DNA of 64,000 nt. Origin: Spirulinaceae cyanobacterium SM2_1_0 (GTDB lineage: Bacteria > Cyanobacteriota > Cyanobacteriia > Cyanobacteriales > Spirulinaceae). The DNA lies in NCBI GenBank assembly GCA_012031265.1, contig JAAUTY010000020.1:1-64000 (forward strand), written 5' to 3'. The notes beneath the pieces are model-generated. The model worked only from the letters and a program-made list of their open reading frames with translations. It ran no database searches and was not told the origin of the DNA. How positions within the stretch are numbered: position 1 is the stretch's first letter; each line of letters begins with the position of its first letter. Shown here one piece after another: positions 24,306 to 55,746 of this stretch. The translations under genes were made by a program, and so were the position numbers.

Positions 24306-26381
24306 ATGGCAAACTACAGCGCGATCGCAATTGGCATCAACCGCTATCAATTCATTCAACCCCTCAGCTATGCCCAGGCTGATGCCCAGGCGCTGCATTC
24401 CTTCTTGATCGAAGAAGCGGAGTTGCCCAAGAGCCAAGCCCTACTGCTCAGTGACGCTTCGCCCTGGCTCGACAACCAGTCCACCTATCCCACCGGCGAG
24501 TCGATCCGGCGCTGGTTGCAGCCGCCAGACGCACCGACGCCCAAACCCTTTCTCTGGTTCTTCTTCAGCGGCTACGCAGCCCACGTTGATGGTCAAGACT
24601 ACTTCATGCCCATCGATGCCAACCCGGCCGACATCCTTAGTACGGGCATTGCCGCCAGTGAGATCCTCGATTTATTGGCGCAACACGGGGCCGAAAATAT
24701 CGTGCTCTGCCTCGACATCAACCGCTCCCCGAATGCGATCGCCGGGGCGAATGTCGGCGCTGAGATTGTACAACTGGCCCAAGACCAGGGCTTCATCTGC
24801 ATCCTGTCCTGCCAGCTCGAGGAAACCTCCCACGAGTCAATGGCCTTAGGCCACGGGATGTTTGCGGTCGCGCTGCTAGAGGTGTTGCGCTATTATCGCC
24901 ACGAAGTCACCCTCGACCGCCTCGCCCGCTATCTGTGCGATCGCCTGCCTGAACTCAGTCAACACCACTGGCGACCGGTGCAAAATCCACTCATCCTCAT
25001 GCCTTCGCTAGAACTCGTCGACCGCTCACTGCTGCCGGTGGCAATGCCTGAAAGTCAGGACACGCCTGCGGTCGTGGAGACCCCTAGCCCGGTTGTCGAG
25101 TTGACCGCTGACCAGGAATCCACTCACAGCAACGGCAACAACCGCGGCAGTGCTACAGCGCTCGACGACCCTGGCAATGGTCACTCCGGCAGCACCTCGC
25201 TACAACTCCCGACTTTCAACAACCCCAGTGGCGAGGCCGAGCCGCCCGAACTGACCGGCGGCGTTGAGGACATTCGCGAAGACATCGCCCCCCCCATTCC
25301 GTCTGAGCCACCCGAATCCTCAAGCTCGCGCGGACGCTGGCTGCTCTGGAGCGGTCTGGCATTAGCATTGCTCTTGCTCGCAGGTTGGCTGGGGTCTCGC
25401 CGCCAAACCGCGCTCGTCGAAACCCCAGATCCGCCAGTCGTTGCCCCGGCACCGGACGCGGCTACCGAGTCACCGGTGGCACCAGATGCGGCGGCTCCGG
25501 CACCGGACACGACGGCTAGCCCAGCCCCTGATCCTGCTACGCTCGCACCAGAAACGGCGGTGAGTCCAGCAGTGGAAGACGGTGCAGCCCCTGCACCAGA
25601 AACGGCGGCGAGTCCTGCCCCGGATGCGGCAGCGCCGGGAACCGGGGTAGATCAAGGCGTGACTTCACCCACTACCCCCGCACCGGAAACGGCGGCGAGT
25701 CCCAGCCCGGATGCTCAGATTGCGGCCCCGCCGGCTACGACCGCACCTGCACTGGCTGCCCAGACACCAGCCGCCGTGACGCAAACTGAGGGGGCGAGTC
25801 GCGCGATTCTGGCACGAGCACGCACCTACATCCAAGCCAATCAGGCGACTGGTTTCAGCCGTGCTGTGGCTGAAGCACGCAAGATTCCGGCCGGTGCGCC
25901 GCTCTACGACGAAGCACAAGCTGATATTCAGCGTTGGAGCCAAGTCATTCTTGACATCGGTAAAGGTCGTGCCGCGCGAGGACAGTTTGGAGCGGCGATC
26001 GCCGCTGCCCAGTTGGTCTCTCCGGATCGCGGTGAACTTTACCAGGATGCCCAAGCGAGCGTCGCCCGTTGGCAACAGCAGGCACAGCAGCAGACGGTCA
26101 ACCTGAAAGTGCTCAGCGACGCGCGGCGCACGATCAACTACACGCAGGCTTCGTCCTACAACCAGGCGATCACGATGCTGGCAGCGATCCCGCCCGGTCA
26201 ACCTGGTTACCTCGAAGCGGAGTCCCTGCGGGAGCGCTGGAGCCGCCAAATCTATCTGATCGCTAACTCGCGCGCTGCTCAGGGCAATCTCGAGCAGGCG
26301 ATCGCCACCGCTCGACTCGTCCCAACGGGAACCTCCAATTACACCGATGCCCAGCAGGCGATCGCCCGCTGGCAGCAATGA
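24306..26381 (+). CDS. Pseudo-caspase (peptidase C14-like) with membrane anchor
   Basis: 691 residues. Residues 1-235 are a caspase-like p20 domain (AIAIGINRYQF, then FLWFFFSGYAAHVDGQDYFM). At the catalytic histidine position (canonical SGHG) there is Tyr90, and at the cysteine position (canonical DACHS) there is Asn139 in LDINRS, so proteolysis is not expected. A low-complexity linker precedes a single membrane helix at about 344-363. Next is a Pro/Ala-rich segment with repeated APETAASPAP-like units (370-490), then a helical C-terminal domain of about four repeats ending in ARWQQ. Catalytically altered orthocaspases of this kind are known in cyanobacteria; their role is unknown. It is followed by the 111-bp repeat copy 2. 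Confidence 0.85.
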   Translation: MANYSAIAIGINRYQFIQPLSYAQADAQALHSFLIEEAELPKSQALLLSDASPWLDNQSTYPTGESIRRWLQPPDAPTPKPFLWFFFSGYAAHVDGQDYFMPIDANPADILSTGIAASEILDLLAQHGAENIVLCLDINRSPNAIAGANVGAEIVQLAQDQGFICILSCQLEETSHESMALGHGMFAVALLEVLRYYRHEVTLDRLARYLCDRLPELSQHHWRPVQNPLILMPSLELVDRSLLPVAMPESQDTPAVVETPSPVVELTADQESTHSNGNNRGSATALDDPGNGHSGSTSLQLPTFNNPSGEAEPPELTGGVEDIREDIAPPIPSEPPESSSSRGRWLLWSGLALALLLLAGWLGSRRQTALVETPDPPVVAPAPDAATESPVAPDAAAPAPDTTASPAPDPATLAPETAVSPAVEDGAAPAPETAASPAPDAAAPGTGVDQGVTSPTTPAPETAASPSPDAQIAAPPATTAPALAAQTPAAVTQTEGASRAILARARTYIQANQATGFSRAVAEARKIPAGAPLYDEAQADIQRWSQVILDIGKGRAARGQFGAAIAAAQLVSPDRGELYQDAQASVARWQQQAQQQTVNLKVLSDARRTINYTQASSYNQAITMLAAIPPGQPGYLEAESLRERWSRQIYLIANSRAAQGNLEQAIATARLVPTGTSNYTDAQQAIARWQQ

Positions 26382-26440: not shown

Positions 26441-26551
26441 CTAGTACCGCTACGCGGAGTTTTGAGTTCTAAATTTTGAGTTCTGAGTGTCTACAATACT
26501 GGAATCCTGGAGATTTTGAATGGGCATCTCATTTCCGCCGCCTTGTACTAG
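26441..26551 (+). repeat. 111-bp MITE-like element, copy 2
   Basis: Starts CTAGTACCGCTACGCGGAG and ends CCGCCTTGTACTAG. The heptamer array is partly degenerate. Its last bases supply the TAG stop codon (26548-26550, minus strand) of the sigma-like downstream ORF, so the element sits directly on that gene's 3' end. Confidence 0.9.
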
Positions 26552-27276
26552 GAGGCGCGTTCGGCGCGCAAGCGTTCCAGGCAATCGCAGAGGCTGCGCG
26601 CGAATAAACTGCGCGGCGGCGGCTGGCGTTGCTTCACTTCGGCTTCACTCGCCGCTTCATTGATAATCTCCGTCAGCTCCGCAGCCAGTGCTTCCTGAAT
26701 AGTGCTGTATAACGCCTGCAAGCACTCGGCATCGCTGTAGGCTTGCGCCAGTTCGGTGACGCGATCACTCAGCAACTCTAGCGCATACTGGCTAATCGTC
26801 GCGCGCAACTGCTTCAGCTTCAGCAGACGGCTGACCTGATACTGCGCTTGCAGACCGATACTGGCGGCAATCTCGGTCATGTTCTCGCCGCGCACGTGGA
26901 AGCGGTAGAGCGCATCCAGCAACTGCGCCGCCCGCTGAGGTTGGCGACGGCAGCGTTCGCGGAGCGCCCGCTCACTCGCGATCGCGAGGCAGTCCCGAAA
27001 TAATTCGTGGTAGCGTTGCAAAAATTCCCGTTGCATCTGTCGCGTATCGTTCTCGCTGGCAGTGATCGCCCCCGCGTGCAGTTGCGGGTCATCCAGCGAT
27101 TCGGTCAGCGGTGACTTGTTCCGCCGTTGGACGCGATAAAGCCGCAACTGAGCCGCAAGCTCGCGCAATTTGCTAAGCGCCTGACTGGAACTCAAACTCT
27201 GCTGATGCTGTTGCCACAAATCTTCGCTGATACGCTGCAACTGATCCACATCAGGCGGCAGGCAACGACCGCTCAT
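26548..27276 (-). CDS. Sigma-70-like protein, C-terminal part (region 4-type HTH)
   Basis: 242 residues, basic and helical. YRFHVRGENMTEIAASIGL followed by QYQVSRLLKLKQLR resembles sigma region 4: a helix-turn-helix with a recognition helix rich in basic residues. The start ATG overlaps the stop of the upstream ORF (ATGA at 27273-27276). The start GRCLPPDVDQLQRI reads like the middle of a larger protein, so either the pair is two coupled subunits or one sigma-like gene with a one-base frame error. The stop codon lies inside repeat copy 2, so the native C-terminus may differ. Confidence 0.65.
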   Translation of the reverse strand: MSGRCLPPDVDQLQRISEDLWQQHQQSLSSSQALSKLRELAAQLRLYRVQRRNKSPLTESLDDPQLHAGAITASENDTRQMQREFLQRYHELFRDCLAIASERALRERCRRQPQRAAQLLDALYRFHVRGENMTEIAASIGLQAQYQVSRLLKLKQLRATISQYALELLSDRVTELAQAYSDAECLQALYSTIQEALAAELTEIINEAASEAEVKQRQPPPRSLFARSLCDCLERLRAERAS

Positions 27277-27938
27277 CCCGGCTGCGAGCGATCGCGCCGG
27301 TAGACGGCATGATAACTGCTCAACAACGCCTGATCACTCTCCACCTCCGCAGCCGAGAGCGCCAAAATGGTGGTGAGACGATGGGGCGGCGTGTCATTGA
27401 GGATTGCCCAGTCACTGATCAGATAAACGCCATAACTGAGCAGGCAATCGTTGAGTTCTCGGTGCTGCCCGACGAGGCGACTGATCCAAGCACTGAGGCT
27501 GCCCCGTTCTGGCTCATAGGTTCGCAGGATCTCAGCCGCCAGGGGCACATGACAGCGATCGCGCTGCTCCGACTCGGCCTCTACCAACGGTCGTAGTGAA
27601 GTTGTCAGGGCAACATCTGTCAACACCAACGGCAACAAATCGCGTGACCCAAAACCGTAAGCCTTGCCAAAGCGCTCAGCCAACTGCCAGCAAGCTTGGG
27701 CGATGTGGTTGGAAATATAGCACCGCAAGCAGAGTTCAGCCGCACTCGGTTGCGGCTGCTCCGGATCAGTCTGCCAAGTATGATAAAGCTGGCGGGTGAT
27801 CGCGGTGTCGCTGAGCGCCAGCGGCGCAAAATGAGTGGTGAAGAACTGTCGAGCCGTGGCGATCTCCTGGCGTTGACTGCCCCGCTCGACATTGAGCACC
27901 ACAAACTGCCAGTAGAAAGCGCGATCGCGTTGATTCAT
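27273..27938 (-). CDS. Sigma-70-like protein, N-terminal part (region 2-like)
   Basis: 221 residues. After a helical start it contains AAEILRTYEPERGSLSAWISRLVGQHRELNDCLLSYGVYLISDWAIL, which resembles the sigma region 2 pattern (Y/F-x-P-x-RGSLxxWxxR) seen in ECF-like factors of cyanobacteria. It ends QALLSSYHAVYRRDRSQPG. The following ORF carries the region 4-like half. I infer an alternative sigma factor or a sigma-derived regulator; no promoter target or anti-sigma gene can be named. The convergent neighbour is the pseudo-caspase gene. Confidence 0.6.
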   Translation of the reverse strand: MNQRDRAFYWQFVVLNVERGSQRQEIATARQFFTTHFAPLALSDTAITRQLYHTWQTDPEQPQPSAAELCLRCYISNHIAQACWQLAERFGKAYGFGSRDLLPLVLTDVALTTSLRPLVEAESEQRDRCHVPLAAEILRTYEPERGSLSAWISRLVGQHRELNDCLLSYGVYLISDWAILNDTPPHRLTTILALSAAEVESDQALLSSYHAVYRRDRSQPG

Positions 27939-30380: not shown

Positions 30381-31244
30381 ATGAATGATCAGTCTCGTGA
30401 GGAGCCAATCGCCATCGCCACGGCTACACCTTGGTTTGACCGTCAGCGTTTCGATGCGGCCTGGGCAAGGCAGCCCTGGATGGATGCTAGACCTGAGCTG
30501 GCGCTCACCGAGTATCGGCAAATCGACTCCACCAACCGCGCGCTCTGGCGGCAGTTGATGAGCGGTGGCTGCCATCTACCGGCAGCGGCGATCGCCCGTG
30601 AACAAACGGCCGGGCGTGGGCAGTGGCAGCGGACTTGGCAGTCAGCTCCGGGCGGTCTGTATCTATCCATTGCCTTACCCGCTCCGGATGTGCCCCATGG
30701 TCGGTTGCCTTTAGCCATTGCTCGGGCGATCGCCCGGGCGCTCCGTCATCAGGGTCTACCTGTACAACTCAAGTGGCCCAATGACCTGATCTTGCAGGGG
30801 AAAAAGCTGGGCGGGTTACTCTGCGAGACGCGCCGCCTCGGGGATCAGGCTCAAACGGTGGTCGGCCTCGGCTGCAACTGGACAAATCCGGTTCCGGAGA
30901 CGGGGATCAATTTACAAACCTGGCAGCAGACAACCGGATTATCGGCGGTGACTGGCTTGGAGCAGTTGGCGGCGATCGCCAGTTACGGGATTTTGACCGG
31001 CGCGGCGATCGCCGCCAATACCGACTGGCTCACGGACTACTGGCAACTCCTCGCGCACCAGCAGGGGCCGGTGCGCGTCCAGGGTTGTCCCGGCACAGCT
31101 ATCGGGGTCACGCCAGCCGGTGAGTTGCGCGTGCGTTTGCAGGCCCCGGGCGCGGCGACGGAGATTTGCTGTCTACCCGGCAGCGTTCGCATTGACTATG
31201 CCGACCTGTCCCCCACACCCGACTCAATCGCGCCGCCAGATTAA
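30381..31244 (+). CDS. birA: Biotin--[acetyl-CoA-carboxylase] ligase
   Basis: 287 residues. It transfers biotin from biotinyl-AMP to the carrier protein AccB for fatty acid synthesis. Motifs: REQTAGRGQWQRTWQSAPGG (the GRG loop that holds biotinyl-AMP) and LKWPNDLILQGKKLGGLL with the catalytic lysine. The N-terminus lacks the helix-turn-helix of E. coli BirA, so it is the monofunctional type. Its 3' end overlaps the convergent solute-binding protein gene by 21 bases. Confidence 0.93.
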   Translation: MNDQSREEPIAIATATPWFDRQRFDAAWARQPWMDARPELALTEYRQIDSTNRALWRQLMSGGCHLPAAAIAREQTAGRGQWQRTWQSAPGGLYLSIALPAPDVPHGRLPLAIARAIARALRHQGLPVQLKWPNDLILQGKKLGGLLCETRRLGDQAQTVVGLGCNWTNPVPETGINLQTWQQTTGLSAVTGLEQLAAIASYGILTGAAIAANTDWLTDYWQLLAHQQGPVRVQGCPGTAIGVTPAGELRVRLQAPGAATEICCLPGSVRIDYADLSPTPDSIAPPD

Positions 31245-32520
31245 TTCCAGACGTTGTTGCGATCGCGCCAGGGCAACTTCCGGATCATCACCGAGCAGTA
31301 CCGCCTCGATGGCGCGGCCGAGGCTGTCGGAGAGGCGGGCGTAGCCGGGGAGAATGGGGCGCGATCGCCCCGCTGCCATCTGGTCGAGAAAGACTCGCAA
31401 CACCGGCTGTTGAGCCACGTAGTCTTGGTAGGTCTGGCTCGCCCGCGCCGCCAAGTTCACCGGCAAATAGCCGGTGCCCAGTGCCCAGCGCGTTTGAAAT
31501 TCTTCACTGAGCGCATAGGCTAAGAACTCCAACGCTGCCTGCTCGCGTTCAGGCGTCGTCTGCATGACAAACAAGCTCTCACCGCCCAGCACCGTCGCCG
31601 GTTGCGCCTGTTGGGGAATCGGCAAAACCGCAAAATCATCGCCCACGGGTGTCTCGGGCAAAAAGCCCAGCGTCCACGGCCCGGTCAATTGCATCGCAAC
31701 GCGACCGCTGATGAAGGCGTCTTGCTCGTAGCCACGCTCCGGTTGCGAGAGCAGGGCGGAGCCATCAGCCAGCAGGTCAGACCAGAGTTGTAGTGCCGCT
31801 ACTGCACCCGGATCGATCAGCGTCGGTGCGCCATTCGCGACGATTTCGCCGCCCGCGCTGTAGAGGAAGGGCAACCAGCTAAAGACGCTCCACTCGCCCT
31901 TGCCTAGCGGCAGGAGCATTCCGTACTGTTCCGGCTGCCCGTCGCCGTCGCGATCGCGGGTCAACTTCCGGGCCGCATCGCGCCACTCGGCCCAGGTGCG
32001 CGGCAGTTCTGTGATCCCAGCGGCGGCAAAGAGGCTGGGGCGGTAGAACAAGCCCATGTTATTGGTCGCCATCGGCACTGACCAAAGCTGCCCCTCGAAG
32101 CGCATCGACTCGAGCAGCGCCGGATCGAGTTGCTGACTGGCGGGGAGTTGGGCAAACCAGTCGTCGAGCGATCGCAGCGCTTGCAACTCGACAAATTGCC
32201 CCGTCGCCGTCGGCGAAAACCAGAGAATATCGGGCGGCTCGCCACCAATGACAGCGGTGAGCACCTTGGGCATTTGCTGGTCGGACTGGCCGACATACAG
32301 CGCCTCAACTTCAATCTCAGCGTGCTCGCGATTGAAAGTGTCTACCAGTTCTTGGAAGACATCGCGGTTGGGCGGCGGATTGATGCCATGCCAGAGGGTG
32401 AGGTGGATGATTCCGGCCGGGGGCGGGGGGGGGAGCTTGGCAGGCAGTGGTACAAAGCACCGAGAGGCTGAGCGCGATCGCCAGCCCCACACTCAACCAA
32501 CCCCGATAGAGCCAACGCAC
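31224..32520 (-). CDS. ABC sugar-binding lipoprotein, frame broken at a G9 run
   Basis: The main part encodes a family 1 extracellular solute-binding protein (LTLWHGINPPPNRDVFQELV, GEPPDILWFSPTATG, YRPSLFAAAGI, FISGRVAMQLTGPW). It lacks a signal peptide in its own frame. A lipoprotein signal starts at a GTG at 32520 in another frame (MRWLYRGWLSVGLAIALSL, lipobox with Cys in CTTAC) and runs into QAPPPAP. The switch falls in runs of G5 and G9 (32419-32433), so one base of correction gives a protein of about 430 residues. Such proteins deliver sugars to an ABC importer; no permease or ATPase gene is adjacent. Confidence 0.82.
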
Positions 32521-49465: not shown

Positions 49466-50217
49466 ATGATTGCCAAGCCGAGCGCTCTACTGGAGCGATT
49501 GCCCGCCGATCTCGACAGCCACCGTCTGCCCGAACACGTTGCCGTGATCATGGATGGCAACGGTCGCTGGGCACAGCAGCGCGGCTTCCCCCGCATGGTG
49601 GGTCATCAGCGCGGCGTCGATACGCTGAAAGATTTACTCCGCTGTTGCAAGGATTGGGGCGTCCCGGCCCTGACCGCCTATGCGTTTTCCACAGAGAACT
49701 GGGGGCGACCGCTGAACGAAGTCGATTTTCTGATGACGCTGTTTGAGCGCGTGCTGCGGCGCGAGCTAGACGAGATGATGGCAGAAAATGTTCGCATTCG
49801 CTTTGTCGGCAACTTGGCGGCGTTGCCGGAGACCTTGCAGGCAGAGATTGGACGTGCCATGAGCGACACCGCCGATAATACCGCTGTGCAATTTACCGTG
49901 GCGACCAACTACGGCGGCCGTCAGGAGATTTTGCACGCTTGCCGGGCGATCGCCCAGAAGGTACAACAGGGTGAATTGACGGTTGAGGAGATCGACGAGC
50001 AGATTTTTGAGCGCCACCTCTACACCGCCGGTCTCGCTCACCCCGACTTGCTGATCCGCACCAGCGGCGAAATGCGGATTAGCAACTTTTGCTCTGGCAG
50101 ATGGCCTATGCCGAAATCTACGTCACAGAAACGGCCTGGCCCGATTTCAGCCGCCCCGATTTCCACCAGGCATTGCTGAACTACCAACAGCGCCAGCGTC
50201 GCTTCGGCAAGGTTTGA
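49466..50217 (+). CDS. uppS: Isoprenyl (undecaprenyl) diphosphate synthase, frame broken at T4
   Basis: About 250 residues after correction. It joins isopentenyl units in cis to make the polyprenyl carrier for peptidoglycan. [20 protein letters not shown] has the catalytic Asp and diphosphate-binding residues; [18 protein letters not shown] follows; the C-terminal [11 protein letters not shown] starts the last motif. In the given frame it turns to non-family sequence after NF; the other frame reads [20 protein letters not shown], stopping at 50215-50217. One T is missing in TTTT at 50087-50090. Confidence 0.93.
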
Positions 50218-54473: not shown

Positions 54474-55746
54474 ATGGATACAACAAGCTATCACTCTGGA
54501 TTGACTGTATTAGGGCTACCCGCCGAGCGAGGTCGGTGGCTCCTCATTCCTTTGGGCACGAGTGTTTTACTTTGCCTCGGCAGTGTCTATGCCTGGAGCG
54601 TTTTTAGAACGCCGCTAGAAGCCGAGCTAAACATTGGAGCGACGGCAAGCCTACTGCCCTACACTATCGCCCTCGTGTGCTACGCCGCCTCTATGCCGAT
54701 TGCAGGCTTCTGCATTCCACGCGTCGGCACGCGTACGATGACCGCCATTGGTGGCGTAGTGGTGGGGTTAGGTTACATCCTGGCGAGCTTTGCCACCAAT
54801 ATCTGGCTGATTACATGCGCCTACGGAGTGATCGCCGGTACTGGAGTGGGCATCGCTTACGGGGTTCCCGTCGTCGTCGCGGCTCGTTGGTTTCCCGATA
54901 AAAAAGGCTTGGCAGTTGGGCTGACGATCATTGGCTTTGGTCTGTCACCGCTGATCACCGCCCCCTTAGAGAATTATTTAGTCGAAACCTACACGGTGCG
55001 GCCGACACTGCGAATCATGGGTTTCGCCTTCATGCTGATCGTGCTGGCGATCGCGATCACTCTGAAGCTCCCCCCAAGGATTGGCAACCCCGCCAGTATC
55101 TGGCAGCTCCAACGGCTGCTGTCGCCCAAACTATCCCCAAAATTTGCTCAGAAGCCAATCATTTTACGGACTGTGGTTCTGCTATGCAATTGGCACGCTG
55201 ATCGGCTTGAGCGCGATTGGGATTTCCAGCCCCGTTGGTGAAGAAATCATTCAGATCGATTCCCGGGTCGCTGCCAGTAGTGTTTCGCTGTTTGCGCTCT
55301 TCAATGGCGCGAGTCGGCCGTTATTCGGCTGGTTGAGTGATCGCTTCAAACCCCATTACATTGCCATCCTCTCCTACAGTTTGTTTCTCCTCGCTTGTCT
55401 GCTCATGACCAGTGCCCAAGACGGACAGGTAGCGAAGTATTTGGTTGCCTTTTGCCTCTTTTGGTTTTGCTTAGGCGGTTGGCTGGCGATCGCGCCCACG
55501 ACCACCCTACGCTTTTTCGATCCCGACCATTACGCCCAAAACTATGGGATTGTGTTTACGGCTTATGGGGTCGGCGCTCTGACTGGAACCTTAGTCACTG
55601 GGCGCATTCGTGATTGGTTTGGAACCTATACCTATGCGTTTTATCCCATGGCACTTCTGGCAATCATTGGCATCGTCGTCGCGAGTCTGATGCTCAAGCG
55701 CGAGCGATCGCCGCAAGCCTCCTCTCAAGTCGGCATTGCTGATTGA
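54474..55746 (+). CDS. OFA-type major facilitator transporter, frame broken
   Basis: About 420 residues after correction with twelve membrane helices, the oxalate/formate antiporter-like group. The first half (residues 1-195) has GSVYAWSVFRTPLEAEL and GVGIAYGVPVVVAARWFPDKKGLAVGL; the second half (from about 55130) has SFYGLWFCYAIGTLIGLSAIGIS, NGASRPLFGWLSDRF and the last helices. Between them the frame switches once or twice: PPKDWQP is readable in a third frame near 55075, and the C-terminal frame takes over near 55140. Runs of C6 and CCCCAAAATTT are there. A transported acid cannot be named. Confidence 0.78.

What the first reader, a model, noticed from the sequence alone, without database searches (positions are those of the whole stretch)
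26548..27938. Sigma-like factor split between two overlapping ORFs next to the pseudo-caspase
Region 2-like and region 4-like halves lie on separate frames joined by an ATGA overlap. A bipartite sigma factor would be notable; a one-base error is the simpler view, as other genes here show the same.
Basis: partly seen in the sequence, partly recalled or inferred. Interest (0 to 1): 0.5.

Follow-up and report, generated by a model that had tools for sequence, protein, structure and literature searches.

The report
Frameshifted sigma-like gene, likely sequencing error
A cyanobacterial gene that looks like a distant relative of transcription sigma factors appears cut in two only because one base is out of step, most likely through a sequencing error, since every relative examined is one continuous gene at that point and several unrelated genes of the same assembly are cut the same way.

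Summary
In detail: two minus-strand ORFs (27938-27273 and 27276-26548) share an ATGA overlap. They are two pieces of one gene. Both hit the same single-ORF homologues, including a 474-aa paralogue in the same genome. In 80 of 80 genome loci both halves lie in one frame across the junction. The split is best read as an assembly indel. The genome's only undecaprenyl-diphosphate synthase gene is frameshifted 23 kb away, an MFS gene is split too, and two more split genes turned up in 183 kb sampled elsewhere. The ATGA overlap is not special: 9.8% of simulated one-base deletions in this window's long ORFs give one. The protein is sigma-like at fold level only. The window's N half aligns to sigma regions 1.2-2 (Z 6.5-7.9); the C half has a weak region-4-like HTH. 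No Pfam, NCBIfam or PHROGs family claims it. Relatives head an operon with DUF1822 and a CHAT/CHASE2 gene, matching a module predicted by Kaur et al. 2021 (PMC8195603). This copy lacks those partners. A genuine bipartite sigma factor is unlikely (about 5%).

The parts
27273..27938 (-). N-terminal piece (221 aa) of the sigma-like gene; sigma regions 1.2-2-like core plus helices that follow it
26548..27276 (-). C-terminal piece (242 aa) of the same gene; helical region and a sigma region 4-like HTH
27273..27276 (-). ATGA overlap: start of the C ORF and stop of the N ORF
27271..27287 (-). variable linker of 17 nt between the conserved end of the N piece (YRRDR) and the conserved start of the C piece (GRC.PP); the frame break must lie in or next to it
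27426..27893 (-). part of the N piece (residues 16-171) that aligns with sigma regions 1.2-2 of solved sigma factors; holds YEPERGSLSAW, compared by eye with the sigma region 2 motif FDP..G..FSTY
26803..26880 (-). helix-turn-helix MTEIAASIGLQAQYQVSRLLKLKQLR, region 4-like
24306..26381 (+). convergent neighbour with a caspase-like domain; not part of the split gene and not a conserved neighbour of the family

Best explanation
The two ORFs are one gene of about 464 codons for a sigma-factor-like protein, broken by a one-base shift in the unconserved linker between its region 2-like half and its C-terminal half. The shift is most likely a sequencing or assembly indel, so the cell probably makes one full-length protein. 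By its family, that protein most likely works as the transcriptional output of a caspase/CHAT-linked sensing module: a signal received by the partner proteins would let it join RNA polymerase and redirect transcription. Shown: one gene in relatives, other frameshifts in this assembly, a sigma region 2-like predicted fold, and the family's operon. Inferred: that the base is wrong in the data rather than in the cell, and all of the function. This copy lacks the usual operon partners, so it would have to use the copies at C11 or elsewhere, or act differently.
For: Both halves hit the same single ORFs of 443-540 aa without stops in relatives and in the own-genome paralogue. Both halves are in one frame in 80 of 80 loci; 77 of 80 are uninterrupted end to end. 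The only Prenyltransf (PF01255) gene of the genome is in two frames, profile 1-180 then 180-219, at a run of T. The MFS gene at 54474-55743 is split. HlyD- and STELLO-like genes elsewhere are split where homologues are whole. ATGA overlap arises in 3963 of 40455 simulated deletions in 30 long window ORFs, any start overlapping the stop in 16803 of 40455. Fold. Operon. Literature: PMC8195603 section 9.
Against: The break falls in the linker and spares every conserved block. A one-base deletion anywhere in a homologue puts the first stop there in only 2355 of 45486 cases; times the 9.8% for ATGA this is roughly 0.5%, if independent. In 32 homologues only 4 of 1668 linker deletions gave an ATG overlapping the stop. 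The site holds no run longer than GGG, unlike the uppS and MFS breaks. The gene has a long end branch (1.0 against a median of 0.38), which would also suit a decaying orphan. No reads were available.
Confidence: 0.76

Rival explanations
1. A real frameshift mutation: the orphan copy has lost its DUF1822 and CHASE2 partners and is starting to decay as a pseudogene.
For: No partners next to it; end branch 1.0 against 0.65 and 0.41 of its nearest kin and a median of 0.38; an intact paralogue with full operon exists in the genome. Broken copies exist elsewhere: Tolypothrix PCC 7601 plasmid and a frameshift inside the N half of L145.
Against: Only one break, at the most tolerant place; no other stop or shift in either half; codon usage still coding in both. 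Other whole copies also lack the partners, so lacking them does not itself mean decay.
Confidence: 0.14
2. A genuine two-subunit sigma factor: the halves are made separately by termination-reinitiation at ATGA and assemble on RNA polymerase.
For: Break between conserved domains with ATGA overlap; both halves keep all conserved blocks; a two-subunit sigma factor is known, SigO-RsoA of B. subtilis (passage of PMC8103513).
Against: No homologue is split at the junction (0 of 80; 0 of 21 loci); ATGA overlap is an ordinary outcome of a deletion; no Shine-Dalgarno-like stretch seen by eye before the inner ATG; the assembly has other frameshifts.
Confidence: 0.06
3. Programmed -1 frameshifting joins the two frames, so both a short and a full-length protein are made.
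For: The C frame is in the -1 frame and open for 19 codons upstream.
Against: No slippery heptamer of the X XXY YYZ kind is visible in the 17-nt linker (judged by eye); no homologue needs it.
Confidence: 0.02

Closest known systems
EACC2-caspase systems with 'ECF sigma factor' and DUF1822 genes (Kaur et al. 2021, eLife, PMC8195603)
   Same: Relatives and the own-genome paralogue head an operon with a DUF1822 gene and a CHAT/CHASE2 protein; the paper describes a caspase-type constant protein with variable C-terminus (CHASE2 named) and neighbouring ECF sigma factor and DUF1822 genes
   Different: This copy has no such partners beside it; the paper does not name this protein by accession in the text read, so identity with its 'ECF sigma factor' is likely but not shown
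Sigma-70 family (regions 1.2-4)
   Same: N half aligns to sigma regions 1.2-2 over 91-109 residues at 2.9-4.2 A; C half has a region 4-like HTH in the right order
   Different: No Pfam, NCBIfam or PHROGs sigma model matches; profile-profile E only 0.015; extra helical region in the C half; longer than ECF factors (recalled)
[quoted passage not shown] subtilis (PMC8103513)
   Same: Sigma2- and sigma4-like parts on separate ORFs
   Different: There the split is established; here relatives are fused and the split is probably an error

Membership tests
Two-subunit (bipartite) sigma factor | the two domains are separate genes, conserved as such in relatives | tested here: not met
   both halves in one frame in 80 of 80 loci and in the relatives
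Two-subunit (bipartite) sigma factor | both polypeptides are made and bind RNA polymerase together | not testable with these tools
   needs proteomics and pull-down
Sigma-70 family | sigma2 fold | tested here: met
   all 50 listed rows are sigma chains as far as titles show, Z 6.5-7.9, 2.9-4.2 A; but Foldseek alone gives none at E<=0.001 and its top rows for this half are other proteins
Sigma-70 family | recognisable sequence profile (Pfam/NCBIfam sigma models) | tested here: not met
   no sigma model at E<=1 or E<=0.1
Sigma-70 family | region 4 helix-turn-helix | tested here: inconclusive
   hhalign E 0.015 and 0.019, probability 2-3%, in the expected register; control DUF1822 vs sigma E 0.71
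Sigma-70 family | binds core RNA polymerase and directs promoter recognition | not testable with these tools
   no experiment
EACC2-caspase / DUF1822 module | DUF1822 gene directly downstream | tested here: not met
   absent beside the window gene though present in 73 of 78 loci with enough sequence and beside the paralogue
EACC2-caspase / DUF1822 module | caspase/CHAT protein with variable C-terminus such as CHASE2 in the operon | tested here: not met
   absent beside the window gene; paralogue operon has CHAT + CHASE2; CHASE2 in 40 of 65 loci with >=4500 nt downstream

The most novel reading that the evidence does not exclude
A member of a caspase-linked, sequence-divergent cyanobacterial sigma-factor family has truly become a two-subunit sigma factor: after leaving its DUF1822/CHASE2 operon it split cleanly at the linker, with ATGA-coupled translation keeping the halves in equal amounts, so that promoter recognition by region 2 and region 4 can be controlled separately.
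Probability: 0.05. Interest if true: 0.55.

Novelty: not a real feature. Interest (0 to 1): 0.14.

Why it matters
As a split it matters little: it is a warning that this assembly carries false frameshifts in roughly one gene per 50 kb sampled, so 'split gene' readings from it need a homologue check. What remains of interest is the family: a divergent sigma-like protein with no entry in Pfam, NCBIfam or PHROGs, found in cyanobacteria as the first gene of a DUF1822 - CHAT/CHASE2 operon. That suggests a transcriptional arm of predicted caspase-linked conflict or stress systems and could be tested directly in a laboratory cyanobacterium.

Tried and rejected
Pfam, NCBIfam, PHROGs and PDB-sequence searches gave no sigma match (the best PDB hit, E 0.0045, is DMAP6, unrelated by name). 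The viral-contig scan found nothing. Foldseek against the PDB gave no hit at E<=0.001 for the full model or for the window N half (top rows HIV capsid, RNA-editing complex and others). Sigma factors appear among weak hits, and take the list only after re-alignment. The C half was not folded alone.

The caspase neighbour as a system partner was rejected: none of the three caspase queries, the window's own included, matched within 5 kb upstream in 57 of 57 loci with enough sequence. In 20 relatives' and own stretches, matches to the two plasmid caspase queries occur in 3 (L055, L056, L062), more than 5 kb from the sigma-like gene, and the window's caspase matches none as a best hit.

Orphan copies do not form one clade: 6 changes for 6 orphan rows, no better than shuffles.

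I took ATGA as possible evidence for a true split until the simulation. The solute-binding protein ORF at 31224-32492 was suspected of a frameshift; one search gave no support (no family in the other frame).

No independent sequence of the species was found; the genus holds one genome.

Full report
What is there. On the minus strand, ORF N (27938-27273, 221 aa) ends in TGA that overlaps the ATG of ORF C (27276-26548, 242 aa) as ATGA. The C frame is the -1 frame and is open 19 codons upstream of its ATG. A codon-usage segmentation calls both pieces coding, with a direct switch at 27278/27279. The neighbour 24306-26381 (+) has a caspase domain (Peptidase_C14 E 6.8e-10) and lies tail-to-tail. Its catalytic His and Cys positions look replaced (SGYA, LDINRS), but that is my reading by eye.

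One gene, not two. Searched separately in 59 genomes (own plus relatives), N matches 16 and C matches 15, at the same places. Outside the window all N matches lie in open frames of 443-540 aa with no stop. One is a paralogue in the same genome (G000:C11, 474 aa). C gave one further weak match with a stop, G017:C100, E 1.9e-4, which N does not share. Aligned with 21 homologues, the halves meet in a variable linker between a conserved YH.VYR-type end and a conserved C.PP..QL start. A scan of genome contigs gave 107 relatives, the best 80 kept. In 80 of 80 the two halves are in one frame; 77 of 80 have no stop from first to last matched residue. L090 and L131 stop only in the last few bases of the match, and L145 has a shift inside the N half. 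None is split at the junction. Plasmid relatives (18 records for N, 15 for C) are annotated as single hypothetical proteins in the four I looked at first. The Tolypothrix PCC 7601 copy is annotated in two pieces, while for PCC 7712 unbroken matches to both halves are listed on NZ_CP063788.

Why an error is likely. The window shows the same fault in other genes. The isoprenyl (undecaprenyl-diphosphate) synthase gene at 49466-50217 matches PF01255 positions 1-180 in one frame and 180-219 in another, at a run of T. It is the only such gene in the genome, and the family is found in all 14 control genomes. An MFS gene at 54474-55743 is split where relatives are single ORFs; its break lies among runs of C and A. 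Of the 10 same-strand direct switches in the window I took three as broken genes: uppS, MFS and this one. In 10 stretches of the own genome (183,271 bases, chosen around sigma-factor hits plus one at C11) 21 switches were listed. I judged most ordinary gene boundaries by eye. I tested two as splits, and both are split where homologues are whole: a HlyD-type gene (closest homologues 451-486 aa, own paralogue included) and a STELLO-like gene (homologues 339-359 aa). That is 5 broken genes in 247 kb, about one per 50 kb (my arithmetic; the sample is not random).

Is the ATGA overlap special? No. In 30 long ORFs of this window, 3963 of 40455 simulated one-base deletions (9.8%) end at a TGA overlapped by an in-frame ATG, and 16803 (41.5%) at a stop overlapped by ATG, GTG or TTG. 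The reason is mechanical: in that shifted frame a TGA always comes from NTG followed by A. Less expected is the place: 2355 of 45486 deletions across 32 homologues put the first stop in the linker (5.2%), and within their linkers only 4 of 1668 deletions gave an ATG overlapping the stop (five of 37 genes were dropped because the motif search failed). The site also lacks a long run of one base. These are the main points for a real split, and they keep the rival alive at a few per cent.

Is it sigma-like? By sequence hardly: no model in Pfam or NCBIfam, none in PHROGs, none in PDB sequences. hhalign with six of the genome's own sigma factors gives E 0.015 (probability 3%), and with two others E 0.019, both reaching the region 4 HTH; a DUF1822 control gives E 0.71. 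By predicted structure it is more so. A 479-aa homologue (37-sequence alignment, pLDDT 86) and the window N half (31 sequences, pLDDT 84, pTM 0.75) were folded. Foldseek alone is not significant. After re-alignment, all 50 listed rows are sigma chains as far as titles show, both for the full model (Z 6.5-7.6; many rows span all domains at about 20 A rmsd, so only the one-domain rows count) and for the window N half (Z 6.5-7.9, 91-109 residues, 2.9-4.2 A, within residues 2-171; 79 of 903 chains at Z>=5). The tool warns that Z under 8 can be a common arrangement and that it re-ranks only Foldseek's list; sigma chains are also abundant in the PDB. The family motif [FY][DEN]P.[KRQ][GSA][SN]L.[TA]W resembles the FDP..GY.FSTY motif of the genome's sigma factors (my comparison). 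I take 'divergent sigma-like protein' as probable, about 0.75, with the junction between the region 2-like half (plus following helices) and the C half.

Context and mechanism. In 73 of 78 loci with at least 1500 nt downstream a DUF1822 gene follows on the same strand, and in 40 of 65 with at least 4500 nt a CHASE2 gene follows (tblastn with a few queries, some unannotated plasmid proteins counted by position, so approximate). The paralogue at C11 is followed by DUF1822 (E 6.4e-51) and a protein with CHAT and CHASE2 domains. In one search, 15 of 20 relatives' and own stretches have a DUF1822-like gene next to it. The window copy does not, and several other whole copies do not either (L051, L052, L055, L057, where L064 ends too early to tell; 5 of 78). 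Section 9 of Kaur et al. [quoted passage not shown] This family most likely is, or stands in for, that sigma factor. Searches for DUF1822 with or without CHASE2, and for EACC2 with caspase and sigma factor, found only that paper and a Tolypothrix genome paper (search listings). Function is therefore inferred: a transcriptional output of a caspase/CHAT-linked sensor module.

Verdict. The split is probably an assembly indel (0.76), less likely a true recent mutation of an orphan copy (0.14), a bipartite sigma factor (0.06) or programmed frameshifting (0.02). Interest is low for the split and moderate for the family, whose operon type is already in print.

Noticed in passing
window 49466-50217 (+): The genome's only undecaprenyl-diphosphate synthase gene (PF01255) is frameshifted at a run of T near 50086-50090; almost surely an assembly error.
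   Followed up: yes
window 54474-55743 (+): MFS transporter gene split over frames, with breaks among runs of C and A; the closest relatives are single ORFs of 410-475 aa.
   Followed up: yes
L160:1-862 and L156:2373-3412 (own genome, contigs C43 and C47): HlyD-type and STELLO-like genes are likewise split; homologues are whole.
   Followed up: partly
window 24306-26381 (+): Caspase-fold protein whose catalytic His and Cys positions look replaced (SGYA, LDINRS), with a Pro/Ala-rich linker and repeats; likely a pseudo-caspase. By-eye reading.
   Followed up: no
L174:4243-4992 (own genome C54): A different small sigma-like ORF (249 aa, no Pfam match) with a YDPERAVLQWV motif and a C-terminal HTH-like end stands directly before another DUF1822 gene: a second, unrelated-looking occupant of the sigma position in these operons.
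   Followed up: partly
L050:3262-8437 (own genome C11): Intact operon: sigma-like paralogue, DUF1822, CHAT+CHASE2 protein.
   Followed up: yes
L049 (Tolypothrix sp. PCC 7601 plasmid NZ_CP064882): The sigma-like gene is annotated in two pieces and the following DUF1822 and other ORFs look fragmented, while PCC 7712 has unbroken matches to both halves; decay or assembly error.
   Followed up: no
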